Shown in pieces: positions 3-63,202 of a DNA stretch of 64,000 nt. Under the pieces are notes generated by a model. It saw only the letters and a program-made list of their open reading frames with translations. It was not told the origin of the DNA and did no database searches. The stretch's first letter is position 1, and each line of letters starts with the position of its first letter. A program made the translations under genes and the position numbers. The DNA is from Bacteroidales bacterium (GTDB taxonomy: Bacteria; Bacteroidota; Bacteroidia; Bacteroidales; P3): contig JAISGN010000012.1 in the NCBI GenBank assembly GCA_031263015.1, positions 1 through 64,000 on the forward strand, in the 5' to 3' direction.

Positions 3-782
3 GAGACGGGCTTCGGATACTTCGGAGCAAGGTATTACTATGATTATTTGAGTATCTGGTTGAGTACCGACCCTCTGGCTGATAAGTATCCTTCGCTAAG
101 TCCGTATGTGTATTGTGCAAATAATCCTGTGATACTGATAGACCCTGATGGTAGAGATATTGACCCGTCATCAGAAAAGAATGAGAGAATACAAGAACAA
201 CGAAAGAATAATCCGGCATTTGCCAGCGTATATCAAAAGCTCAAAGAAGACCCTACAACAATATACAGATTTAGAGAAATGAGTAATGCAAAGCAAGACC
301 CTGAAAACTCTAATCGTTTAATTTTTGGAGATGTTACCTATGCGAATGATTTAGAAACAGAAACAAAAGATGGAATAGATATAAACTTTACTTATGGTAA
401 ATTAGAGGGTTACGCTGACGATAATGTTTTAATGGAAGAAACATATCATGCACTACAGTTTTTAGAAGGGAAAACAGGATTTGGTACTAATGGCACTGGA
501 GATATGTCCCCATTTTCTGTTGATTTGGATGATGAAATTGAGGCAAAAACTTGGGCTGCAAACAATACGGCATCTACTCCAGAATCAAAGAGCTTTCTTA
601 ATTCAAGCAGAGAAGATAAAATTAAATATCTACGAAACAATGGTTATACTCAAACACAAGAAAGTGCCATAAGTGCGGCAGAAACATATAGAAGAGGTAC
701 CACTCCTACACCTGTAATTAGCTATAATAAACATGGGGTAGCGACAAATTCAGGGAATTACAGATTTAGAAAACCTAAATAA
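3..782 (+). CDS. RHS repeat-associated core protein, C-terminal part (5' truncated by window)
   Basis: The reading frame is open from the first bases of the window, so this is the 3' end of a longer gene. It begins in the RHS core signature (GFGYFGARYY, then STDPLADKYPSLSPYVYC and NNPVILIDPDG), which in RHS/YD-repeat proteins marks the end of the conserved shell and the start of the variable C-terminal tip. The roughly 210-residue tip has no domain I recognise. It contains EETYHALQ (an ExxHAxQ arrangement) and, about 30 residues later, DEIEAKTWAA, which faintly recalls zincin-like metallopeptidases; that reading is inference. RHS tips are commonly secreted toxins. The next gene follows after 8 bp and could be an immunity partner. 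The identity of the core is secure; the activity of the tip is unknown. Confidence 0.85.
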   Translation, partial: ETGFGYFGARYYYDYLSIWLSTDPLADKYPSLSPYVYCANNPVILIDPDGRDIDPSSEKNERIQEQRKNNPAFASVYQKLKEDPTTIYRFREMSNAKQDPENSNRLIFGDVTYANDLETETKDGIDINFTYGKLEGYADDNVLMEETYHALQFLEGKTGFGTNGTGDMSPFSVDLDDEIEAKTWAANNTASTPESKSFLNSSREDKIKYLRNNGYTQTQESAISAAETYRRGTTPTPVISYNKHGVATNSGNYRFRKPK

Positions 783-790
783 TTATTGTT

Positions 791-1498
791 ATGAAAAAGA
801 TATTGATTTTCTTGGCAATAATTATTATTGTTGGTTGTAAAAGTAAGCATACCGGAATTATCTTAAGTGAAAAATATGAAAAGTATTTAGATAGCTTGGA
901 ATTTGAAGAATGGTGTTCAAATTTAGATGACGAAACAAAGTGGAAATCTCTTAATAGAGAAACATTTAGTAAAACATTTGAAAGAGATGGAACATTTGCA
1001 TTATGCTATTTTTTGTCATTAGATTCTATTATCAATGATACATTATCTTTTGATAAAAACAAAGAGGAATATGTACGGTATGCTCTTCTTAAAGTTAAAA
1101 TCCCTGATGGACGTTTTTATACAAAAAAGGCTTTTCGTTTTTCGACTAATAGTAGTTGTTTTAATCCAAGTAATAATGACAGTTTAACATTGCAGAGATT
1201 AAATGATGTAGAAATGACAGCCGAATATTTATACTTAAAGATACTGCCTTCTGAAATAGAAGATATACAAGATGTAATCAAGAAGAAAGAATGCGTATTG
1301 CTGTATAATATAGATTATTCGTGGTTTTATGATGATATTACCCCTAATGCTCTAATAGCATACTCATATTACAGACAAGGGCAATACGATTTAAGTAAAT
1401 TATATTCTACCGAAGATCTTTGTAAATTTTGTGATTCAATTCGTAAATATCACCCTGAACTTATTGGTAGAGGAAGAAGATTGAACAAGGTAAAGTAA
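791..1498 (+). CDS. Hypothetical lipoprotein downstream of RHS tip
   Basis: A 235-residue protein with an N-terminal hydrophobic stretch (MKKILIFLAIIIIVGC) ending in a lipobox-like IVGC, so probably a lipoprotein. The rest is hydrophilic, rich in Lys, Asp, Ser and Tyr, and matches no family I can name. It starts 8 bp after the RHS-tip gene and is probably co-transcribed with it. Genes in this position often encode immunity proteins, but nothing in this sequence shows that directly. The A+T content is as high as in the RHS tip and higher than in the housekeeping genes further right, consistent with variable accessory DNA. Confidence 0.75.
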   Translation: MKKILIFLAIIIIVGCKSKHTGIILSEKYEKYLDSLEFEEWCSNLDDETKWKSLNRETFSKTFERDGTFALCYFLSLDSIINDTLSFDKNKEEYVRYALLKVKIPDGRFYTKKAFRFSTNSSCFNPSNNDSLTLQRLNDVEMTAEYLYLKILPSEIEDIQDVIKKKECVLLYNIDYSWFYDDITPNALIAYSYYRQGQYDLSKLYSTEDLCKFCDSIRKYHPELIGRGRRLNKVK

Positions 1499-1577
1499 AT
1501 AATAACAATCATGATGAGTTGTAATTATTAGATTAGACTTTACAAAAGCAAAAAGTCCGTTCAAATCAATGAACGGA

Positions 1578-2098
1578 CTTTTGTTTGCTATAATGTACGC
1601 CATACATTGTCTTCCCACAACCTATTTTGCTACAATGTACGTCATACATTCTTTCCCCACAACTTATTTTGCTACAATGTATGCCATACATTCTTTCCCC
1701 ACAACCTATTTCATTACAATGTATGTCATACATTGTCTTCCCACAACCTATTTTGCTACAATGTACGTCATACATTGTCTTCCCACAACCTATTTTGCTA
1801 CAATGTATGCCACCTGAAGTCTTCCCACAGGTAATTTGAGACCTTCGTGTAACACATGAAGACTTCCCACAGGTAATTTGGGACTTTCGGATTTTCCCGA
1901 AGTCTTCCCACAAGTTATTTGAGACCTTCGTGTAACACATGAACTCTTCCCACAGGTAATTTGAGACCTTCGTGTAACACATGAAGACTTCCCACAGGTG
2001 TTTTGAGACCTTTGTGTAACACATGAAGTCTTCCCACAGGTGTTTTGAGACCTTTGTGTAACACATGAAGTCTTCCCACAAGTTATTTGAGACCTTCG
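1578..2098. repeat. 42-bp tandem minisatellite, about 12 units
   Basis: The anchor TTCCCACA recurs every 42 bp from about 1612 to 2080; one interval, from the unit near 1871 to the one near 1912, is 41 bp. There are two unit types. The left half carries a dyad ACAATGTATG..CATACATTGT followed by a TTCCCACAACCTATTTTG half. The right half carries TTCGTGTAACACATGAAG followed by TTCCCACAGGTAATTTGA. Each unit divides into two 21-bp halves, matching the 21-bp architecture of the other intergenic arrays. Because 42 is a multiple of three, long open frames cross the array on both strands; these are by-products, and the 41-bp unit switches them between frames. Confidence 0.95.
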
Positions 2099-2181
2099 GG
2101 AGCCACCTATTGTTATTGCTGAAAATCTCTATCATTGACATGCTCCGACCTGCGGCAAACCCGTTAATCAAACTTATTTGC

Positions 2182-2189
2182 TACCTTTG
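2182..2189 (+). promoter_or_regulatory. Putative -7 promoter element for the hydrolase-MATE pair
   Basis: TACCTTTG matches the Bacteroidota -7 consensus TAnnTTTG. It lies 35 bp before the start codon of the alpha/beta hydrolase gene and just after the minisatellite. I see no clear -33 TTTG at the usual distance. Confidence 0.65.
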
Positions 2190-2224
2190 CACTCTTAAAT
2201 CAAACAGATATAGCATTATATTAG

Positions 2225-3511
2225 ATGAGAAAAATTATATTATATTGTGTTTTTGTTATTACTTCAATTGCGGCTTCAAGTCAAAACAATGCCTATTTTG
2301 AAGGGGCAATAGAAGTGAATTTTACAAAGATGCCGCTTACCATAGAATATACTCTTTTAGATAAGGATACACTGAAACTGTACTTCGGCTCACCTTCGCA
2401 AACCAATGATTTGCTGAAAGCGACAAAGGCATATTTCAAAGGAGATTCATTGCTGTTTCAATTGAAGAAAAACAATATTGTTTATCGTGGAAAGTTCAAT
2501 GAGGCAAAGGATACGATTAATGGTGTATTCAAACAGGGATTGTTGAAAACGCCTTTGATGTTTGTGAAGCGGGATACGGCTTTTGCTTATGTTCGTCCGC
2601 AGACTCCGTTGCCGCCTTTTGCTTATGTTGTGAAGGAAGTAGAGTTTGTTAATCCCAAATTGCCTAAATATACTTTCAAAGGGACTCTCACCATGCCTAA
2701 GAGGGGGAGAAATTTCCTTTGCGTGGTGTTATTGAGCGGCAGCGGCGTGCAAAACAGAGATGAAGAGATATATGGTCATAAGCCTTTCCTTGTTATTGCC
2801 GACCATTTGGCAAAATGCGGCATTGCCACCTTTCGTTATGATGACAGAGGCTATGGAACGAATGATAAAAAATTGCTTGATGCCACTACAATGGATTATG
2901 TTGCCGATGCACAGGCTGCTATTGCTGCTGTAAAGGCAGAGGATAAGATTGATACGAACCATATTTCTCTTCTTGGGCATAGTGAGGGAGCGCTGATAGC
3001 GGAAATTATTGCGGCAAAGGACTCTTCTATCAATTGCCTGGTGTTGTTGGGTGCTCCTGCTGTTGATGGTCGCAGTTTGTTGGTCTCTCAACTAAAAGCA
3101 ATAAGTCAGGCGGACAGCATTAGCAACGATTCTATTAGTGTAATGCTGGAACAACAAACCAAATCGCTTAATGACCCTAAGTTGCCGAAGTGGCTTAAGA
3201 CTTATATTGCGATTGACCCCAAAGAATACTTGCAGGATATTACGCAGCCAGCTTTGTTCCTGTATGGCAAGAAGGATTTGCAGGTCGTTCCATCCGATAA
3301 CATACCTGTTATAAAGCAATATTTCGGCAAGAAGAAAGGGAATAATTCATATAAAATACTTGAAATGCCGGAAGACAATCATTTGTTTCAGCGTTGTGAG
3401 ACAGGTTTGCCGTCAGAGTACGGAGATATAGAAATGACTCTTGATAATGAAGTATTGTATCATATTGTTACATTCATCAGGGAAAAAGGCTCAATCAAAA
3501 GACTACATTAA
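2225..3511 (+). CDS. Secreted alpha/beta hydrolase (serine aminopeptidase S33-like)
   Basis: A 428-residue protein with a signal peptide (ending around IAASSQ). A roughly 130-residue N-terminal extension is followed by an alpha/beta-hydrolase domain. The oxyanion region is LSGSGVQNRDEE and the nucleophile elbow is GHSEGA, with an Asp in GKKDLQVVPSDN and a His in EDNHLF completing the likely triad. The arrangement matches periplasmic hydrolases of the Hydrolase_4/S33-like group (EstD-like esterases); the substrate cannot be deduced. The stop codon shares one base with the start of the MATE gene (TAATG), so the two are translationally coupled. Confidence 0.85.
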   Translation: MRKIILYCVFVITSIAASSQNNAYFEGAIEVNFTKMPLTIEYTLLDKDTLKLYFGSPSQTNDLLKATKAYFKGDSLLFQLKKNNIVYRGKFNEAKDTINGVFKQGLLKTPLMFVKRDTAFAYVRPQTPLPPFAYVVKEVEFVNPKLPKYTFKGTLTMPKRGRNFLCVVLLSGSGVQNRDEEIYGHKPFLVIADHLAKCGIATFRYDDRGYGTNDKKLLDATTMDYVADAQAAIAAVKAEDKIDTNHISLLGHSEGALIAEIIAAKDSSINCLVLLGAPAVDGRSLLVSQLKAISQADSISNDSISVMLEQQTKSLNDPKLPKWLKTYIAIDPKEYLQDITQPALFLYGKKDLQVVPSDNIPVIKQYFGKKKGNNSYKILEMPEDNHLFQRCETGLPSEYGDIEMTLDNEVLYHIVTFIREKGSIKRLH

Positions 3512-4854
3512 TGATATTAAAAAGGCACTACTACACCACTAATCTCAAACTTGCCTACCCCATAATACTATCTCTAATATGCCAAAGTTTGGTGCAGGTC
3601 GCCGACACGCTGATGGTAGGACGAATAGATGCCGTTTCGCTTGCGGCGGTGTCGTTTTCGGGAGCGATATTCAACGTTGCACTTGTGTTGGGTATAGGAA
3701 TGTCAATGGCAATTACGCCCTTGATTTCCCAATGCTATGCACAGGGCAAACACAGAAAGATTGCCGACTATCTTGCTAACGGATTGGTATTAAACATAGC
3801 GGTTTCTATAATTATAGTAGGGGTATTGCTGGCTATCATTCCGCTGTTGGACGATTTCAATCAGCCGCAGGAGATAATTCAGGCGGCAAAGCCTTATTAT
3901 ATAATAATGGTATTGAGTCTTATTCCCAATCAGATATTTTTGTGCTTCAAACAATTTCTGGAAGGCGTACAGAATACCAAAGCAGCAATGGCTGTAATTA
4001 TAAGTGCCAACGTGCTTAATATTATCCTCAACTACATATTCATCTATGGTTTTATGTCTATTCCTGCAATGGGAGTGTTCGGAGCAGGGCTATCAAGTTT
4101 TGTTTCCCGTTTGTTAATGCCCTTTGTTTTATTCGCCTTCATTCGTTTGAAGAACAGATACTATAAATACATAAAACTCATTGATGCAAATAATATTAAT
4201 CCTACCGTATCAACAAGCATTCTTCGTATAGGCATACCGATATCGGGGCAGATGACCATAGAGTGCTTCACGTTCGGTATATTGACTTTTTACTTCGGAT
4301 GGGTTTCTACTAAGGATATGGCAGCGTATCAGGTGGTGATGACAATGGTTACAATGACTTTTCATGTATGCGTGGGGTTGGCAAATGCCACGACCATTCT
4401 CGTTGGTTTTTATGCAGGCAAACACGATTGGGCTGGAGTGTCGCAATATGCCAAAACAGGTCTGCATCTTGCAATAATCTTTATGTCTTTCACCATGCTT
4501 TGCTTCATATTGTTAGGCAGAAATATCGCTGGATTGTTTTCCAACGATGCCCAAGTGATATCCATAGCGGCGAGATTATTTGTGGCGGCAGGTATGTTTC
4601 AATTGCTTGACGGCTCTCAGGCTACGCTGCTTGGTGCATTGAGAGGCTTGAAATGGGTTACACGTCCGATGTATTACGCATTTGGTTGTTATTTGCTGAT
4701 TTCACTTCCCTTGGCATACATTGCGTGTTTTGTTGTCGGTTTGCCTTCATGGAGCATACTTGCAGGTTTTTCGCTTGGGATGTTGAGCGTTGCATTGCTG
4801 TATTATAGAGAATTGTCCCATGTTCTTAAAACAAAGCTTGCTCATCATTCATAA
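3511..4854 (+). CDS. MATE family efflux transporter
   Basis: A 447-residue, highly hydrophobic protein with about 12 membrane segments and the two-bundle MATE layout. The N-terminal half has LAYPIILSLICQSLVQVADTLMVGRID, typical of MatE domains, and the second half repeats it (RIGIPISGQMTIECFTFGILTF). MATE proteins export cationic drugs or other organic molecules using Na+ or H+ gradients; the substrate is unknown here. The length is normal for the family. It overlaps the upstream hydrolase gene by one base. Confidence 0.93.
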   Translation: MILKRHYYTTNLKLAYPIILSLICQSLVQVADTLMVGRIDAVSLAAVSFSGAIFNVALVLGIGMSMAITPLISQCYAQGKHRKIADYLANGLVLNIAVSIIIVGVLLAIIPLLDDFNQPQEIIQAAKPYYIIMVLSLIPNQIFLCFKQFLEGVQNTKAAMAVIISANVLNIILNYIFIYGFMSIPAMGVFGAGLSSFVSRLLMPFVLFAFIRLKNRYYKYIKLIDANNINPTVSTSILRIGIPISGQMTIECFTFGILTFYFGWVSTKDMAAYQVVMTMVTMTFHVCVGLANATTILVGFYAGKHDWAGVSQYAKTGLHLAIIFMSFTMLCFILLGRNIAGLFSNDAQVISIAARLFVAAGMFQLLDGSQATLLGALRGLKWVTRPMYYAFGCYLLISLPLAYIACFVVGLPSWSILAGFSLGMLSVALLYYRELSHVLKTKLAHHS

Positions 4855-4932
4855 GAAATCTCATAGCGATAATGTTTAAATGTTAGTAGGGGGTGCAACA
4901 TAGGTGCGATGAGCACTTATGACAATATTTTG

Positions 4933-4940
4933 TACCTTTG
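4933..4940 (+). promoter_or_regulatory. Putative -7 promoter element for the S9 peptidase gene
   Basis: TACCTTTG matches TAnnTTTG and lies 43 bp before the start codon, in the only non-coding gap (129 bp) between the MATE and S9 genes. Confidence 0.7.
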
Positions 4941-4983
4941 CCGCTTGTTGATTTACTGGTCTTAATATAAAAATAACAAACAA

Positions 4984-7113
4984 ATGAAAAGAAAAACTAC
5001 TTTATTTATTGTGTCTTTTGCAATATTCTCCTTTGTCTTTGCACAGGGTAAGATGTTGGAAGTTAAAGACGTTCGCAACCGAGCATATTATCCTATAAAT
5101 ATTTATGCCACTAATTTCATAGGTAAAAGCGATAAGTATTACTTTACAAAGGACGGCTCTTCGCTGTGGATTGGCGACAGAGTTAATGACCCAAAAGAAA
5201 CCTTGACGCTTGCCGATATTGATGAGCATTTGTCCGCATTTAATATGCATTTTATCAATGATAACGAGTTCGTATTCTTTAACGGCACTGCTCTTTGCAA
5301 ATATAATCTGACGACAAAGACCAAAAGCATTATTACATCCATAGGTGATGATGATAAGGCTAAATTGGACGCTGTAATGACGGTAGGGGATAATATTGCT
5401 TACGTTTATAAAGATAATCTTTGGTTTGCCACTCCTGCTTCCAACACTCAGATAACGCATGACGGCAACAAAAAAGGCGGAATAGTGTATGGACAATCTG
5501 TTCATAGGAATGAATTCGGTATAAACGGCGGATTATTCTTTTCCAAATCAGGTAACAAATTAGCCTTTTATCGTATGGATGAGTCTATGGTCAAGGAATA
5601 TCCACTTGTAAATACTGCTTTGCGGGAAGCAGAAGCTGAACCGATTCGTTATCCTATGGCAGGAATGAAATCACACGAAGTTTTGGTTATGGTCTATGAT
5701 GCGATTAAGGGAACGAAACTAACTCTTAAAACACGCAAAGATGAAAGCGTTGCAGAGAAAGAGATGTATCTTACAAATATTACTTGGAGTCCTGACGAGC
5801 AAACGATATATATTCAGAAACTAAACCGCAAACAAAACCATCTTTGGCTTGAAGCATACGATGCAAACAGCGGAGAATTGAAACAAATCGTGCTTGAAGA
5901 AAAATCAAACAAGTATGTAGAACCCGAAAAGCCTATAGTATTTTTGCCGAACGATGATTCGCAATTTCTTTATTTGAGCGAAAGAGACGGATTTCAACAC
6001 TTATACATTTATAAGACTGACGGAACATTGGTTAAACAACTAACGTCGGGCAAATGGATGGTAAATGAAGTTTGTGGCTTTAATGCAAAGGGCGACGAGG
6101 TCTTTTTCTATGCTACAAAAGACTCTCCGTTGGAACAAAACCTCTATGGGGCTAATCTTAAAACAGGAAAGATAACACGCTACACCTCTTCGGCAGGCAC
6201 ACATAGCGTTGCCATAAATGCAAAAGGCGATTTGTTCATTGACAACTACTCAAACGCCGCAACCCCATCAACAACTATTTTAACGGATAAAAAGAACAAA
6301 ATAATCAAAACTCTTAATCAATCTGCCAATCCTTTGGAACAAATTGCACAACCTACTATTGAAATCGGGCAATTGAAGGCTGATGACGGCACACCTTTAT
6401 ATTATCGTATGATAAAGCCGCAAGATTTTGATTCAACAAAGAAATATCCCGTTATTGTCTATGTTTATGGCGGTCCTCACGCACAATTGATAACCAATAA
6501 CTGGATGAGCGGAGCCAATCTCTTCTTTTTATACTTGGCACAGCAGGGATACATAGTATGGACGTTGGATTCACGCGGCTCAGCCAATAGAGGATATGAA
6601 TTTGAGAGTGCAATATGGCACAATTGCGGCTCTGTGGAAGTTCAAGACCAAATGACGGGAGTGAATTATCTGAAATCATTGCCGTATATTGATGCTTCAC
6701 GTATCGGAGTTGATGGTTGGAGTTACGGAGGCTTTATGACAATAAGTTTAATGCTGAAACAGCCCGGCGTATTCAAGACAGCATCGGCAGGAGGTCCTGT
6801 TATAGATTGGAAATGGTACGAAGTAATGTATGGCGAACGCTATATGGGTACACCGGAAGATAATCCTGAGGGTTATAAAGCAGCATCGCTTTTGAATTAT
6901 GTTGATAATCTTCAAGGCAAACTGCTTGTCATTCACGGAGCGCTTGATAACACTGTCGTAATGCAGCATTCCCTTGAATTCATAAAGGCTTGCATAAAGC
7001 ACCAAAAGCAGGTTGATTATTTTATTTACCCCGATCACGAGCATAATGTAAGCGGTAAGGACAGGATTCACCTGTATCAGAAAATTTTTGACTTTCATAA
7101 AGCAAATCTCTAA
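4984..7113 (+). CDS. Dipeptidyl peptidase IV-like serine peptidase, S9 family
   Basis: A 709-residue exported protein with a signal peptide ending near FVFAQG. The N-terminal part is a DPP IV-type beta-propeller (for example SPDEQTIYIQKLNRKQNH and FLYLSERDGFQHLY). The C-terminal catalytic domain has VYGGPHAQ, nucleophile motif DGWSYGGFM (Ser near residue 580), Asp in HGALDNTVV (near 655) and His in PDHEHNVSG (near 685). Family members remove N-terminal dipeptides, typically Xaa-Pro, in the periplasm. Length and motifs are complete. It is a single-gene unit with its own promoter and a strong hairpin 38 bp after the stop. Confidence 0.93.
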   Translation: MKRKTTLFIVSFAIFSFVFAQGKMLEVKDVRNRAYYPINIYATNFIGKSDKYYFTKDGSSLWIGDRVNDPKETLTLADIDEHLSAFNMHFINDNEFVFFNGTALCKYNLTTKTKSIITSIGDDDKAKLDAVMTVGDNIAYVYKDNLWFATPASNTQITHDGNKKGGIVYGQSVHRNEFGINGGLFFSKSGNKLAFYRMDESMVKEYPLVNTALREAEAEPIRYPMAGMKSHEVLVMVYDAIKGTKLTLKTRKDESVAEKEMYLTNITWSPDEQTIYIQKLNRKQNHLWLEAYDANSGELKQIVLEEKSNKYVEPEKPIVFLPNDDSQFLYLSERDGFQHLYIYKTDGTLVKQLTSGKWMVNEVCGFNAKGDEVFFYATKDSPLEQNLYGANLKTGKITRYTSSAGTHSVAINAKGDLFIDNYSNAATPSTTILTDKKNKIIKTLNQSANPLEQIAQPTIEIGQLKADDGTPLYYRMIKPQDFDSTKKYPVIVYVYGGPHAQLITNNWMSGANLFFLYLAQQGYIVWTLDSRGSANRGYEFESAIWHNCGSVEVQDQMTGVNYLKSLPYIDASRIGVDGWSYGGFMTISLMLKQPGVFKTASAGGPVIDWKWYEVMYGERYMGTPEDNPEGYKAASLLNYVDNLQGKLLVIHGALDNTVVMQHSLEFIKACIKHQKQVDYFIYPDHEHNVSGKDRIHLYQKIFDFHKANL

Positions 7114-7150
7114 CTGTTTCGTATAGAGATTAGTTGATTTCATTAAAACA

Positions 7151-7190
7151 AAACGGCGTTTCGTGCGAATGAAACGCCGTTTTATTTTTC
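7151..7190 (+). terminator. Hairpin with U-rich tail after the S9 peptidase gene
   Basis: AAACGGCGTTT and its exact reverse complement AAACGCCGTTT are separated by 10 nt and followed by TATTTTT. This forms an 11-bp stem with a U-rich tail, like an intrinsic terminator. It is also the first two modules of a 21-bp array. Confidence 0.6.
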
Positions 7191-7234
7191 CCAAACAGCC
7201 TTTTGTTCGCACGAAACAGCCTTTTATTTTGAGA
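7151..7234. repeat. 21-bp modular array, 4 units
   Basis: Four consecutive modules start at 7151, 7172, 7193 and 7214. Their 11-bp cores are AAACGGCGTTT, AAACGCCGTTT, AAACAGCCTTT and AAACAGCCTTT, each followed by a 10-bp spacer. A fifth core, AAACGCCGTTT, stands alone at 7382 with a partial module after it. Apart from this array and the ClC promoter I see nothing in the 341-bp gap 7114-7454. Confidence 0.95.
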
Positions 7235-7442
7235 TAATGAGACTACGTTTTTGCGATGCTATGATATATTACTTTTAAGTTTGATTGCCTTGCACGGATA
7301 CGAGGTAATTTTGCGATATAATCAAGATTAACAATCTTATTTTAAGCCCTTTGCCGAATATCATCAATATATGGTTTGTCAAAACGCCGTTTCGGAAAAA
7401 TGAAGGCTTTTATGAAAATAGTAATATCTGTGAAAAAAATTG

Positions 7443-7450
7443 TAATTTTG
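7443..7450 (+). promoter_or_regulatory. Putative -7 element directly before the ClC gene (leaderless?)
   Basis: TAATTTTG matches TAnnTTTG, and its last base is only 4 nt before the ATG pair at 7455/7458. At the usual -7 spacing the transcript would begin at or inside the start codon, so the mRNA would have essentially no leader unless a later start is used. Confidence 0.55.
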
Positions 7451-7454
7451 CATT

Positions 7455-9260
7455 ATGATGTTGTTAAAGCGCATAAGATTTAAACAAGACTTGTATCAAT
7501 CATACAAAAGGCTGATGGTATGGAAATTAAAGCACGTATCGGAACGTCAGGTTATGATTGTATTGAGTTTAATCACAGGTATATTTTGCGGATTAGCCTC
7601 TGTAATTCTGAAAAATGCCGTTCATGCAACATATCTTTTGATAACCGAGCCTTTTTCCAAGTCTTCTGCCAACTTTCTCTTCCTTGCATATCCTATGATT
7701 GGGATAACGCTGACCGTTTTGATTATTAAATATTTTGTAAAGGACGATTTGGCACACGGAGTCAGCAAAGTAATGTTCGCAATCTCTAAAAGGAAGGGAC
7801 GAATGAAGCCTCATCATTGCTATTCCTCAATGCTGACGTCTTTATTCACCGTTTCGTTCGGCGGTTCTGTCGGTTTGGAGGCACCGATAGTGATAACAGG
7901 GAGCGCAATCGGCTCAAACATCGGGCGTTTCTTTAGAATGAATTACAAATGTATGCTTACATTGTTGGGATGTGGTGCTGCAGGAGCAATATCGGGCATT
8001 TTCAAGGCGCCGATTGCAGGAATATTGTTCGCATTTGAGGTTTTGATGCTGGATTTGACTATGACAACGGCTATTCCGCTGCTAATATCCACCATATCGG
8101 CTGCAATGATTTCATATTTCTTCCTTGGGCAGGACGTAGAGTTCTTTTACAAAGTTACAACGCACTTTGAATTGAATAAAATCATTCCTTATATGTTGTT
8201 AGGAATTATTTCCGCCGTGATATCTCTTTATTTCCTTAAAATAAATAAGTGGATTGCGAAAATGTTTAAGGCGATGAAGACGTGGCAAAAACTTCTTATC
8301 GGCGGCTCTGCTCTTGGTGTTATGGTCTTTCTTTTTCCGCCTCTGTTCGGAGAAGGTTATTCGGCATTGACATATCTTCTTGCGGGAGACACAGAGCGTC
8401 TTTTCAGCAGCAGCTTTTTTTATGATTACAGGGATGAAAGTTTGCTTTTCTTGGGAGTATTGCTTGCTATCATTTTCCTTAAAGCCTTTGCAACCTCTGT
8501 TACTCTTTCTTCCGGAGGAGTAGGAGGCACATTTGCGCCATCTCTTTTTATAGGCGGCTTTGTTGGTTTTTTTGTTGGGAAAGTTATCAATATGACAGGC
8601 TTAATTGTTGTTGCTGAAAGCAATTTTGCTTTGGTCGGAATGGCTGCTGTTATGGCAGGCGTTATGCATGCTCCGCTTATGTCTACATTTCTTATTGCGG
8701 AAATAACCGGTGGTTATGCTCTGTTTGCACCGCTTATGATTGCCACAACAATGGCTTATTTGGTTGTGAAGCCTCTTTCCAAATACTCAATATATACGGA
8801 AAGTCTTGCCAAGCAAGGTGTCTTAACCACACATGACAAGAATAGAAGCGCATTACAATTCCTTGACAAAAGCAAAATATTAGAATCCAATTTTATTAGG
8901 TTATATCCGGACGATAAACTAAGAGATATTGTTAAGGCTGTTGAAATCTCCAATCGTAACTTTTTCCCTGTGGTAAAGAAAGACGATACTTTTGTCGGCA
9001 TAGTTGTTTTGGACGATGTAAGACCCTTTCTTTTTAAGCCGGAATTATATAATAAATACAGCGTAACCTATTTTATGCGTTATTCACCTCATTTCATTGC
9101 CGACATCAACGATTCTATGGAACAGATAATAAGCAAATTCAAAGGCTCTGACCGTTATACTATAATTATTGTTGATAAAGGTAAATTTTTAGGTGCAATG
9201 ACGCGTGCAAATGTCTTCGCTGCTTATCAGCATTACATAGAAGAAACATCGGAAGAGTAG
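7455..9260 (+). CDS. ClC family chloride channel/antiporter with CBS domains
   Basis: A 601-residue protein. Residues of about 30-450 form a ClC membrane domain with the signatures GGSVGLEAPIV (the gating-glutamate loop, near 136), GAAGAISGIFKAPIAG and SSGGVGGTFAPSLFIGG. A cytoplasmic tail (about 465-600) carries two CBS motifs that usually bind adenine nucleotides. ClC proteins move chloride or exchange it for protons. Two ATGs lie in tandem at 7455 and 7458, and the next in-frame ATG is at 7515; because the promoter box is so close, the true start is uncertain. It converges with prmA 21 bp away. Confidence 0.93.
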   Translation: MMLLKRIRFKQDLYQSYKRLMVWKLKHVSERQVMIVLSLITGIFCGLASVILKNAVHATYLLITEPFSKSSANFLFLAYPMIGITLTVLIIKYFVKDDLAHGVSKVMFAISKRKGRMKPHHCYSSMLTSLFTVSFGGSVGLEAPIVITGSAIGSNIGRFFRMNYKCMLTLLGCGAAGAISGIFKAPIAGILFAFEVLMLDLTMTTAIPLLISTISAAMISYFFLGQDVEFFYKVTTHFELNKIIPYMLLGIISAVISLYFLKINKWIAKMFKAMKTWQKLLIGGSALGVMVFLFPPLFGEGYSALTYLLAGDTERLFSSSFFYDYRDESLLFLGVLLAIIFLKAFATSVTLSSGGVGGTFAPSLFIGGFVGFFVGKVINMTGLIVVAESNFALVGMAAVMAGVMHAPLMSTFLIAEITGGYALFAPLMIATTMAYLVVKPLSKYSIYTESLAKQGVLTTHDKNRSALQFLDKSKILESNFIRLYPDDKLRDIVKAVEISNRNFFPVVKKDDTFVGIVVLDDVRPFLFKPELYNKYSVTYFMRYSPHFIADINDSMEQIISKFKGSDRYTIIIVDKGKFLGAMTRANVFAAYQHYIEETSEE

Positions 9261-19632: not shown

Positions 19633-19681
19633 AAACATAGACAGCCGTTCCGATAATCTTATCTCTCCTTAGGCAAAAATG

Positions 19682-19786
19682 AAACAGCCTTTGGTGAAAA
19701 TAAAACAGCGTTTCATTTTTCTAAAACAGCCTTTCGTGCGAACGAAACAGCCTTTTAGAATAATGAAATGTCGGTGCGGCACGCAC
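19682..19786. repeat. 21-bp modular array, 5 units including a GTGCGGCACGCAC module
   Basis: Modules start at 19682, 19703, 19724, 19745 and 19766. Four have AAACAGCSTTT-type cores (AAACAGCCTTT, AAACAGCGTTT, AAACAGCCTTT, AAACAGCCTTT). The fifth keeps exactly the same phase but carries AAATGTCGGTG and then CGGCACGCAC, the second word family. This shows that the two word families belong to one periodic system. The array occupies most of the gap between the FAD/Fe-S gene and the C69 dipeptidase promoter. Confidence 0.95.
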
Positions 19787-23799: not shown

Positions 23800-24365
23800 T
23801 TCCAACGCCATCGAATCAAATAATGTCAGTGCGACACGCACATTCGTCTCATTTTTATCAAATCCAAATGTTAAGAAATTTTGTATAAATTCTTTGAAAT
23901 CTCGTTCCAACGCCCTAAAAAGTGCGAAAAACGGCATTTTTTTCAACTTTTATTCCCCCAAAATCAAGTTTTAATCATCCAAAATCAAATTTCGTTCATC
24001 CAGAATCAAATAAGGTTGGGTGAAACATCGTATGTTTTCGGGCAAAACATCGTATGTTTCCAGTCAAAACATCGTATGTTTCGGGTAGAAACATCGTATG
24101 TTTTGCTCATCCAAATCAAATTACAGATGAACGAAAGCAAGTCCTGAGGGATTAAAAGCAAGTTTTAGGTCGTTGGAAGTTCGTTTGATGGCGTTGGAGG
24201 TTCGTTTGATGGCGATATTGTTTGAAAATAGGGTCGTATTGTTAAATTTTTTAACATTTGAAGGGCGTTTTGTTGGGCTGAAACCTCATTTGTGGGCGTT
24301 GGAACGAAATAAGGGGGGTTTGAAGGCTCTTTTTGATGCGTTGTGTTAAAAAAGTGTTAAAGCGA
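23800..24365. repeat. Large 21/22-bp modular intergenic array
   Basis: From 23800 the sequence can be read as consecutive 21-bp modules, for example starts at 23800, 23821 (TAATGTCAGTGCG word), 23842, 23863, 23884 and 23905 (TTCCAACGCC again), then AAAATCAA words at 23960, 23981 and 24002. A 22-bp sub-array follows, and after 24156 come 21-bp modules built on AAGCAAGTTTT, AAGTTCGTTTG and AGGTTCGTTTG. The word order differs from other loci but the period is kept. No gene is supported in the 772-bp gap 23751-24522; open frames across it are 7-codon periodic artefacts. Confidence 0.85.
24023..24103. repeat. Four direct copies of AAACATCGTATGTTT at 22-bp spacing
   Basis: The 15-bp word AAACATCGTATGTTT starts at 24023, 24045, 24067 and 24089, each exactly 22 bp apart. 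Its AAACAT..ATGTTT arms form a short dyad. The four copies are perfect while the 7-bp spacers vary. Confidence 0.95.
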
Positions 24366-32984: not shown

Positions 32985-33099
32985 GTGCGTGTCGCACCGA
33001 CATTATATTTTCACCAAACGCTGTTTCATTTTAACGAAAGGCTGTTTTAGAAAAATGAAACAGCGTTTTATTTTCACCAAAGGCTGTTTCATTTCGGGC
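32985..33099. repeat. 21-bp modular array between the divergent mfd and parE promoters
   Basis: Core-phase modules start at 32995 (CACCGACATTA, the reverse complement of the TAATGTCGGTG word, preceded by GTGCGTGTCG), 33016 (AAACGCTGTTT), 33037 (AAAGGCTGTTT), 33058 (AAACAGCGTTT) and 33079 (AAAGGCTGTTT). Each module is 21 bp. Cores at 33016 and 33058 are exact reverse complements. It lies between two divergent promoters where no transcript ends. Confidence 0.95.
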
Positions 33100-38599: not shown

Positions 38600-38812
38600 C
38601 AAAAAATAAATAAATATGCTATATTTTACTACAAGAATTTTTTGTTTATTAGTACGGTTTTTATATTTTACCTTTAGGCTGTAATGATATCAAATTAAAT
38701 TTTAGCATATTAGGATTACATAAAATCAAGATTAAAATATAATTATAGCAGGGCTTATTCGGTTTTTATATAAAAAGGTATCGTTAGCCCAATACCGGCT
38801 TACGTCCGAACG

Positions 38813-38896
38813 AAAGGCTGTTTAAATTTTACGAAACAGCCTTTCGTCAGAACGAAACAGCCTTTCATTTGCACGAAACAACCTCTTGTCAGAACG
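38813..38896. repeat. 21-bp modular array, 4 units, between divergent promoters
   Basis: Modules start at 38813 (AAAGGCTGTTT), 38834 (AAACAGCCTTT), 38855 (AAACAGCCTTT) and 38876 (AAACAACCTCT). The first two form a perfect 11-bp hairpin. Spacers end in CG. The array lies between the aspS and lipoprotein promoters, where no transcript ends. In the rest of the 433-bp gap 38571-39003 I see only AT-rich sequence and the two promoters. Confidence 0.95.
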
Positions 38897-38955
38897 AAAG
38901 CGTGAATAATTATGACAATATCTGTGCTTGTAGAAATTAAACAAAATTAAAAGTG

Positions 38956-54480: not shown

Positions 54481-55175
54481 GCAAATATTGGTGCTGCAAA
54501 ACGCCCTTCCAACGCCGCGAAAGTGCGTTTCTGTGCGATGTTTTTTGCTTCCGCCGCAATGAAATCAAATAATATCGGGGCGAAAGGAAGGAAAAACTTA
54601 CAGATTCCTTGCAAGACCCCCCGCAAATGAACTTTACAATTTTTTGTATAAGTTTCCAAAATCGTCATCTCAAATTCCAAAAACGCCATACGAAGCCCGT
54701 AGAGCCACGAACGCCCTTCGGTTGGACAAAAGTGCCGTCTTGAAAATTTGAAGAGACGTTTTTTTAGGGCATAATCAGCATCCGCAACCGCCAACAAATG
54801 CTTTATTCACAGGGAATTTGCTTTAAAAGTAGCAAAATTTGACTTCAAAATCACGAAACTTGCTTTCGTAACGCTGAAACTTGACTTCAGAACGCTGGAA
54901 TTTGATTATAGAATTCTAAAGCTTGATTTCAGAGTTCTAAAGCTTGATTTCGTGTGAATGAAAGCAAGGAATATTTTGGCAAAACGGCGAAAAACCGCCT
55001 TCAAAACTGCTAAAAAACCCCCGTTTTTAAGCCCTTATTTCTGAAAAACGGCGTTTTGAGGCGTTGAAATGAGGTTGAATTTTTTCTGTAAGTTGCTTTT
55101 GTGAGTTTTTTCTGTAATTTCAGGGCGTTGAAAGGTGCGAATCGCACGATATTACTTGATATTGTGGCGTTGGAA
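54481..55175. repeat. Large modular intergenic array containing inverted-repeat copy 1
   Basis: The 779-bp gap 54405-55183 holds no supported gene. From 54481 modules of 21 bp can be laid out (54481, 54502, 54523, 54544, 54565). From about 54820 to 55000 there is a regular run with cores AATTTGCTTTA, AATTTGACTTC, AACTTGCTTTC, AACTTGACTTC, AATTTGATTAT, AGCTTGATTTC and AGCTTGATTTC, each with a 10-bp spacer. Positions 54599-55120 are repeated in inverted orientation at 62658-63202. Confidence 0.88.
54599..55120 (-). repeat. Long inverted repeat, copy 1 (about 522 bp)
   Basis: The reverse complement of this stretch aligns along its whole length with 62658-63202. A 60-bp block (54601-54660) is identical; the next two 60-bp blocks have three and four mismatches. 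Relative to copy 2 it lacks one 21-bp module carrying GTGCGACACGCAC. The proximal 200 bp (about 54600-54800) are the best-conserved part. Confidence 0.93.
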
Positions 55176-62657: not shown

Positions 62658-63202
62658 AAAATTACAGAAAAAACTCACAAAAGCAACTTACAGAAAAAAT
62701 TCAACCTCGTTTCAACGCCTCAAAACGCCGTTTTTCAAAAATAAGGGCTTAAAAAAGGGCATTTTTTAGCAGTTTTGAAGGCGGTTTTTCGCCGTTTTGC
62801 CAAAATATTCCTTCCTTCCGTTCCCACGAAATCAAGCTTTAGAACTCTATAATCAAGCTTTAGAATTCTATAATCAAATTACAGCGTTCTGAAAGCAAGT
62901 TTCAGCGTTCCGAAAGCAAATAATGTCTGTGCGACACGCACTTTCAGGATTTTGAAGTCAAATTTTAGGGTTTTTAAAGCAAATTCCCTGTGAATAAGGC
63001 TTTTGAATGCGGTTGCGGATGCTGATTATGCTCAGAAAAAACGTCTCTTCAAATTTTTAAGACGGCACTTTTGTCCAACCGAAGGTCGTTCGTGGCTCTA
63101 CGGGCTTCGTATGGCGTTTTTGGAATTTGCGATGGCGATTTTGGAAACTTATACAAAAAATTGTAAAGTTCATTTGCGGGGGGTCTTGCAAGGAATCTGT
63201 AA
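62658..63202 (+). repeat. Long inverted repeat, copy 2 (about 545 bp)
   Basis: This is the reverse-complement partner of 54599-55120. It begins with AAATTACAGAAAAAACTC and ends at AGGAATCTGTAA. Between GAAAGCAA and GATTTTGAAG it has 28 bp where copy 1 has 7, a gain of exactly 21 bp that carries GTGCGACACGCAC. Runs of CAAGCTTTAGAA-type words at 21-bp spacing are visible around 62830-62900. Confidence 0.93.

What the first reader, a model, noticed from the sequence alone, without database searches (positions are those of the whole stretch)
1578..2098. 42-bp minisatellite built from two 21-bp halves, with one 41-bp phase-shift unit
About 12 tandem units repeat at 42 bp, twice the period of the other arrays, and each has one dyad half (ACAATGTATG..CATACATTGT) and one constant TTCCCACA half. 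Two unit subtypes occupy separate ends of the array. A single 41-bp interval (near 1871 to 1912) breaks the frame, which changes the peptide repeat in the minus-strand open frame from HLWEDFMCYTKVS-type to QITCGKT-type. It lies right after an RHS toxin tip, a rapidly exchanging locus.
Basis: seen in the sequence. Interest (0 to 1): 0.55.

Follow-up and report, generated by a model that had tools for sequence, protein, structure and literature searches.

The report
Toxin-cassette end repeat, 42-bp units
In an unnamed Bacteroidales bacterium, a two-part 42-base tandem repeat marks the end of toxin-immunity gene cassettes, and its length fits a striking habit of this genome: tandem repeats and base composition keep step with whole turns of the DNA helix.

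Summary
The array is real: 12 units at 1584-2098 (five A, one A/B junction, six B, one of them 41 bp). It is not coding. The same genome holds 12 such arrays, never with B before A. All 3 Rhs cores found are followed by one, and six arrays share the terminator just before them although the DNA further upstream is unrelated. None was found in 40 relatives or, by exact patterns or BLAST, in genome contigs, plasmids, phages or IMG/VR. Most likely it is the 3' homology arm of exchangeable toxin-immunity cassettes; exchange is inferred, not seen. Its length fits a wider habit: 91 of 94 tandem arrays in 464 kb of this genome have periods near 21 bp or multiples. With arrays masked, A/T content follows a 10.54-bp helical comb with a half-life near 500 bp, through genes and spacers. 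It is clear in two of three congeners, faint in a third and in the family, not clear beyond. Cassettes lack most of it. My paper searches showed no such long coherence in print.

The parts
3..782 (+). 3' end of an rhs gene: Rhs-associated core, then a variable tip; the contig (C23) begins inside it
   Evidence: TIGR03696 E 1.2e-11 over residues 1-50; genome hit G000:C23:3-152; no Pfam family for the frame
791..1498 (+). 235-aa gene in the immunity position, lipoprotein-like N-terminus by eye
   Evidence: ORF; no Pfam or NCBIfam match; role inferred from position only
1511..1583 (+). leader plus terminator; its last 33-86 bp equivalents are shared by six array places
   Evidence: terminator-like stem 1551-1582, 13 pairs
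1584..1799 (.). A block: five 42-bp units, dyad ACAATGTAYGYCATACATTGT plus CTTCCCACAACCTATTTTGCT or near variants; dyad halves start at 1590, 1632, 1674, 1716, 1758
1800..1820 (.). A/B junction half-unit (left half of an A dyad, right half of a B-type dyad); typed in 9 of 12 arrays
1821..2098 (.). B block: dyad halves at 1842 (B1), 1884-1903 (B2, 20 nt, gives the 41-bp interval), 1925, 1967, 2009, 2051 (B1), with constant halves of the form CTTCCCACARGTNWTTTGRGA
1566..2171 (-). 201-codon open frame across the array; judged spurious
   Evidence: no Pfam match
2225..3511 (+). alpha/beta hydrolase gene, first gene after the array
   Evidence: Pfam Hydrolase_4 E 4.4e-14
23943..24214 (.). example of the 21-22 bp intergenic arrays of this genome (others at 19676-19755, 33007-33094, 38799-38900, 54835-54951, 62830-62921)

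Best explanation
The array is the repeated 3' boundary of exchangeable Rhs toxin-immunity cassettes in one Bacteroidales species. A payload (variable tip plus immunity-like gene) is bracketed by two sequences repeated in the genome: the Rhs core on its 5' side and a terminator plus 42-bp array on its 3' side. Shown: this bracketing at the three Rhs cores, the terminator-array block shared by six places without further similarity upstream, the fixed A-then-B order, and unit-number differences between copies. Inferred: homologous recombination between Rhs cores and between arrays swaps, stacks and deletes payloads; slippage or unequal crossing-over changes unit number; and a unit of 42 bp fits a genome in which tandem repeats grow in steps of two helical turns (21 bp).
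For: 12 array places in the genome; all 3 Rhs cores found are followed by an array 1.1-1.4 kb downstream. Six places (W, C10, C15, C21a, C21b, C9d) share 33-86 bp that end at the array (within 1 base), with no further blastn similarity upstream among them. A short sequence that by eye reads as Rhs repeat follows the array at C21a, C9c and C24, in part at C9a, and is shared among them. The genes I read as rpoN and lptG, which here border cassettes with arrays, occur in 3 of 3 congeners without the array. Cassette DNA is poor in the host's 10.54-bp comb: 25 windows, mean power 0.55 against 2.10 in AT-matched windows, p 2.5e-4.
Against: No recombination event was observed and no second strain was available. 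The 5' side is not decisive at 3 of 12 places: C8 (39 bp held), C10 (237 bp held), C24 (a divergent gene instead of a cassette gene). 'Immunity' is inferred; most of these small genes match no family, and the Rhs reading of the post-array fragments is by eye, not by a profile. Congeners and family members have Rhs cores without this array, so it is not needed for Rhs cassettes as such. Gene order around the two border genes differs in congeners, so no clean empty site was obtained. The C9d gene is not comb-free (windows of 1.7 and 3.2).
Confidence: 0.5

Rival explanations
1. Passive passenger: a neutral minisatellite that arose once beside an Rhs cassette and was copied along when cassettes duplicated or moved; it does nothing.
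For: Found in one species only. Within dyad types, changes on one side are not matched on the other (A: 150 pairs against 152.9 in shuffles; B1: 119 against 118.4), so the dyads look unselected. Relatives have Rhs cores without it.
Against: The terminator-array block is shared by six places whose DNA further upstream is unrelated, which suggests reshuffling against payloads.
Confidence: 0.32
2. Binding array, insulator or transcription-end structure: dyads spaced four helical turns apart present a protein's sites on one face of the DNA, or fold in RNA, and shield the next gene.
For: Unrelated dyads in the same register: 275 of 369 pairs against 198.8 (sd 12.9, maximum 246 in 2000 shuffles) when right halves are dealt out across types; the strands fold better than shuffles (RNA z -3.98 and -4.94, DNA -4.83).
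Against: No covariation within types; good folding follows from repeated palindromes; a terminator-like stem lies upstream, so the array is probably little transcribed from the cassette (inferred).
Confidence: 0.1
3. Non-autonomous transposable element of the BrickBuilt (MITE) or REP/BIME kind.
For: Dispersed, intergenic, found in one species, A units palindromic.
Against: No RAYT transposase family (PF01797) in 4 of 4 genus genomes; most places lie at cassettes; right-hand flanks differ among most loci; unit 42 bp, not 23 nt.
Confidence: 0.05
4. The minus-strand frame encodes a repeat protein.
For: 201 codons open; in the B1 units the synonymous share in one minus frame exceeds expectation (0.36 against 0.20).
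Against: Two other frames of the B1 units show an excess as well (0.40 against 0.28, 0.39 against 0.26), and in the A units the minus frame that is used lies below expectation (0.08 against 0.21); 41-bp units break the frame; no Pfam match.
Confidence: 0.01

Closest known systems
Rhs main/orphan toxin-immunity cassettes (Koskiniemi et al. 2014, PMC3967940; abstract and passages seen)
   Same: Displaced rhs tip fragments with linked immunity genes downstream of an rhs gene; homologous recombination proposed as the way of rearrangement
   Different: There recombination is between main rhs and orphan fragment; the passages I saw mention no repeat array at the 3' end. Here a terminator plus minisatellite forms a second shared boundary
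BrickBuilt minisatellite-MITE of Porphyromonas gingivalis (PMC4596501; abstract and passages seen)
   Same: Bacteroidales, intergenic, dispersed (19 copies in one strain), species-restricted tandem repeat with changes of unit number
   Different: 23-nt units with leader and tail ending in inverted repeats; here 42-bp two-part units at cassette ends
REP/BIME elements with RAYT transposases (recalled, no paper seen)
   Same: Intergenic palindromic repeats
   Different: No Y1_Tnp in the genus genomes held
Genome-wide ~10-11 bp helical periodicity (PMC4132750, PMC3431218, PMC3940949: passages; PMC7537859: abstract, passages, sections 14 and 18)
   Same: A/T periodic near the helical pitch, strongest at third codon positions, in coding and intergenic DNA
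   Different: PMC4132750 speaks of signals of about 100 bp length; here the half-life is about 500 bp, with a 21-bp alternation

Membership tests
Minisatellite / VNTR | Head-to-tail units of 10-100 bp | tested here: met
Minisatellite / VNTR | Unit number varies between strains | not testable with these tools
   One genome per species; variation among 12 arrays of one genome seen instead
Rhs toxin-immunity cassette | Rhs core with a variable tip and a small downstream gene | tested here: met
   3 of 3 Rhs cores; one tip matches Peptidase_M91, E 7.5e-14
Rhs toxin-immunity cassette | Immunity function of the small genes | not testable with these tools
   Most match no family
BrickBuilt MITE | 23-nt repeat unit | tested here: not met
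   42/41 bp
BrickBuilt MITE | Leader and tail with terminal inverted repeats | tested here: inconclusive
   Left flank shared by six places, right flank by few; inverted ends were not searched for
REP/BIME | RAYT transposase (Y1_Tnp, PF01797) in the genome | tested here: not met
   0 of 4 genus genomes
Prokaryotic helical sequence periodicity | Periodic A/T with period 9.5-11.5 bp, strongest at codon position 3 | tested here: met
   10.52-10.56 bp; lag-21 excess mainly at position 3
Prokaryotic helical sequence periodicity | Signal length about 100 bp | tested here: not met
   Half-life about 502 bp; above 40 of 40 nulls at lags 2000-4000
Histone- or HU-based fibre as cause of the comb | Histone-fold gene, or HU expansion that follows the comb | tested here: not met
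   PF00808 in 0 of 25 genomes; PF00216 counts 4-13 in the genus, 1-29 in the others

The most novel reading that the evidence does not exclude
Chromosomes of this genus are written on a helical grid: A/T content alternates with a 10.54-bp period that stays in phase over hundreds of bases to a few kilobases, across gene borders and both strands, presumably because DNA is held in a long regular nucleoprotein structure, or because mutation or selection follows such a structure. Additions to non-coding DNA then persist mainly when they are whole numbers of two-turn steps, which would explain why nearly every tandem repeat, this 42-bp array included, has a period of 21 bp or a multiple. Imported toxin cassettes stand out as gaps in the grid, and the array is the phase-neutral seam at their 3' edge.
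Probability: 0.35. Interest if true: 0.88.

Novelty: new variant of a known kind. Interest (0 to 1): 0.62.

Why it matters
Taken alone, the array is a species-specific minisatellite at the end of toxin cassettes: it offers a concrete second crossover site for cassette exchange. Taken with its genome, it points to unusually long-ranged helical order in bacterial DNA. That order would make two open questions testable: why many genomes carry helical periodicity at all, and whether such periodicity marks and hinders foreign DNA, as proposed in PMC7537859 (section 18).

Tried and rejected
Coding repeat peptide: rejected. Known RNA: at gathering scores Rfam gave only a tRNA in the window. RAYT/REP: no Y1_Tnp. 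Phage, plasmid or IMG/VR carriage: no match (the last two are exact patterns). 'All 21-bp arrays are palindromic', my first impression from congeners: rejected, 12 of 84 at p<=0.05 where about 4 are expected. Compensatory change inside dyad types: not found. 'Indels in this genus come only in 21-bp steps': not supported in proteins, 105 gaps of which 55 are 1 aa, 4 are 7 aa and 1 is 14 aa. Histone fold or HU expansion behind the comb: not supported. Comb phase through the 42-bp arrays: not decisive, since the flanks of most are comb-poor. One shuffle gave a large value at lags 4000-8000, so I used 40 nulls; at those lags the excess is only 1.7-fold. The cassette/comb contrast was first computed without AT matching (p 8e-11); comb power falls with AT content, so the AT-matched test is the one to use. 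The E. coli control (50 kb) did not show even its published 11-bp period clearly, so absence in small samples is no proof of absence; 60-kb subsamples of the own genome do show the comb. Match z-scores assume independent positions and overstate certainty; the model comparison is in-sample.

Full report
WHAT IS THERE. The array is confirmed at 1584-2098. Typed by unit it reads A A A A A J B1 B2 B1 B1 B1 B1, all spacings 42 bp except one of 41. A units hold the dyad ACAATGTAYGYCATACATTGT; J joins the left half of an A dyad to the right half of a B-type dyad; B units hold other dyads at the same place in the unit. The second half of each unit begins CTTCCCACA or a near variant. The 41-bp interval is the B2 subtype, whose dyad half is 20 nt long; it recurs with 41-bp spacing in three other arrays, so it is not a single phase accident.

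NOT CODING. A 201-codon minus frame is open, as can happen when a unit length is divisible by 3. Synonymous excess in the B1 units appears in three frames, not one, and is reversed in the A units for the minus frame that is used. Neither Pfam nor Rfam at gathering scores recognises the stretch.

THE SAME ARRAY ELSEWHERE IN THE GENOME. BLAST over the own genome gave 15 rows; I group them into 12 places. Anchor counting gives 112 units and typing 109: 46 A, 9 J, 44 B1, 9 B2, 1 B3 (one odd unit at C9a was not typed). Pattern searches hit these places only, apart from two hits with 2 mismatches (all hits are in these places). In 12 of 12 no B precedes an A, though C4 has only A units and C24 only B units. 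A units range from 0 to 10, B units from 0 to 11. C9d also has one spacing of 43. Several places lie at or near contig ends (C4, C8, C10, C24), so some arrays may be cut. No match was found in 40 relatives at E 0.001, in genome contigs (one genome for each of 84,980 species) by one exact pattern, in plasmids or phages by blastn or in IMG/VR by two exact patterns; records of the own genome may be left out there. The nearest named relative of the adjacent hydrolase is a Bacteroidales MAG, Md513_bin13, 60% identical in the best segment.

CASSETTE ENDS. The genome has three matches to the Rhs-associated core; each is followed by a variable tip, a small gene and an array 1.1-1.4 kb downstream. One tip matches Peptidase_M91. 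Of the other nine places, six (C9b, C9c, C21a, C21b, C15, C9d) have a small frame on the array's 5' side, most without a family match; C10 has 237 bp held, C8 39 bp, and C24 a divergent gene instead. At C21a, C9c and C24, and in part at C9a, the array is directly followed by a shared sequence that by eye reads as Rhs repeat; no profile confirmed this. Six places share the last 33-86 bp before the array, terminator included, and no blastn similarity further upstream. The border genes that I read as rpoN and lptG (names from reading, not from a family search) are present in the three congeners without the array; tblastx found no match to the cassette gene beside rpoN, and only short matches in the lptG comparisons. 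I therefore read the terminator-array block as a common 3' end of exchangeable payloads, with the Rhs core as the common 5' end. This gives homologous recombination two anchors. The exchange is inferred.

DYADS. Watson-Crick pairs of 9: A 7.50, B1 6.39 plus 1.39 G-T, J 2.44. Across types the dyads are far above shuffles (275 of 369; shuffled mean 198.8, maximum 246 of 2000); within types there is no covariation. So dyads are present, but nothing shows that selection on structure maintains them. Fold z-scores of -4 to -5 follow from repeated palindromes.

THE 21-BP HABIT. In 20 stretches of 20 kb plus the window (464 kb), 91 of 94 non-overlapping tandem arrays have a period of 20-22 bp or near a multiple of 21-22; two rows are the array itself, and the period-105 row looks like a protein repeat. 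In congeners the counts are 7 of 8, 12 of 12 and 8 of 11; in nine other genomes of the family 6 of 21; in five genomes of other families 0 of 5 (samples of 10-68 kb each). Units are of many sequences: the top ten 5-mers explain 22% of the lag-21 excess. One congener has its own dispersed 44-bp family.

THE COMB. Intergenic DNA matches itself at lag 21 in 0.359 of positions against about 0.27 at most lags, with peaks at 42, 63, 84, 105, 126 and 147 and none at 10, 11, 31, 32, 52 or 53. Genes show it too: +0.028 over 319 reading frames, 88% of them positive, with +0.0625 at third codon positions against +0.014 and +0.011. A 21-state cyclic model fits genes about 4,000 log units better, in-sample, than 18-, 24- or 27-state models. 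In A/T-versus-G/C terms the main component is 10.52-10.56 bp, found also between different genes, on opposite strands (clear at lags 300-900, weak at 5-300) and between genes and spacers. With tandem arrays masked it exceeds 40 of 40 block-shuffled nulls in five lag bands: 3.8-fold at 10-300, 21-fold at 300-900, 7.9-fold at 900-2000, 3.4-fold at 2000-4000, 1.7-fold at 4000-8000. Half-life is about 502 bp. Congener G002 shows it to 4 kb (0 of 40 nulls reach it in the first four bands), G003 to 900 bp (0 of 40 in two bands), G001 faintly (2-3 of 40 nulls reach it in three bands). Nine other family genomes pooled are faint: 1.4-fold (2 of 40), 1.7-fold (0 of 40), 1.0, 1.6-fold (0 of 40) and 0.9, so a weak form in the family is not excluded. 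Five genomes of other families pooled give 1.0-1.4-fold (3-18 of 40), and 50 kb of E. coli at 10.6-11.6 bp give 0.7-1.3-fold (4-39 of 40). The comb runs through ordinary arrays in phase with their flanks about as well as through other DNA.

CASSETTES ARE POOR IN THE COMB. 420-bp windows of other DNA have mean power 3.59 (n = 1086; white noise 1) and windows of nine cassette regions 0.55 (n = 25); the C9d gene is an exception (1.7 and 3.2). Power falls with AT content. Against AT-matched windows the means are 0.55 and 2.10, signed-rank p 2.5e-4; against 182 windows with AT of at least 0.65, p 1.1e-5. This fits import of the payloads. Some native-looking stretches are comb-poor too, one of them at window 3361-5880.

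KNOWN AND NEW. Helical periodicity, its preference for third codon positions and its possible role as a barrier to foreign DNA are in print (PMC4132750, PMC3431218, PMC3940949: passages; PMC7537859: abstract, passages and two sections). PMC4132750 describes signals of about 100 bp. The listings of my searches of the held library showed me no report of kilobase coherence, of tandem repeats held to 21 bp across a genome, or of a minisatellite at Rhs cassette ends; subscription papers are mostly not held. The cause of the comb is unknown: no histone fold (0 of 25 genomes) and no HU pattern matching its distribution. The prediction that protein indels come in 7-residue steps failed (4 of 105 gaps are 7 aa and 1 is 14 aa), so selection against out-of-step indels inside genes is not shown.

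VERDICT. The finding is a non-coding, two-block minisatellite, seen in one species, that marks toxin-cassette ends: in itself a variant of known repeat biology and of moderate interest. Its 42-bp length fits a two-turn habit of the genus, which with the long-range comb is the more surprising observation.

Noticed in passing
L097-L116 (own genome, 400 kb) and window: A/T content follows a 10.54-bp comb with a half-life near 500 bp across genes, spacers and strands; also in congeners G002 and G003, faint in G001 and in the rest of the family.
   Followed up: yes
window 19676-19755, 23943-24214, 33007-33094, 38799-38900, 54835-54951, 62830-62921: Intergenic arrays of period 21-22 bp (one also 42) with varied unit sequences, part of the 91-of-94 count.
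   Followed up: yes
G002 loci L051:7210-7323, L054:9236-9437, L094:2962-3230, L095:2231-2609, L096:2761-2941: A congener has its own dispersed 22/44-bp family built on AACCTAGGTTTC, 45 exact pattern hits, at many places without an Rhs core.
   Followed up: partly
L099:13915, L111:3043, L114:6854 (own genome) and L090:3604 (G003): A 22-bp array family with GGTATATACC occurs in the own genome and in congener G003.
   Followed up: no
G004 and G015 contigs, e.g. L061-L064: Two genomes of another genus of the family hold 29 and 28 Rhs-core matches, many 1.2-1.5 kb apart in tandem, like long rows of orphan tips.
   Followed up: partly
own contigs C4, C8, C9, C10, C23, C24: Several contigs begin or end in or near Rhs cores or these arrays, so assembly breaks may hide further loci.
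   Followed up: no
L106:8401-10920, L116:8821-11340, window 3361-5880: Stretches of 2.5 kb with comb power below the noise mean of 1; possibly further imported DNA.
   Followed up: no
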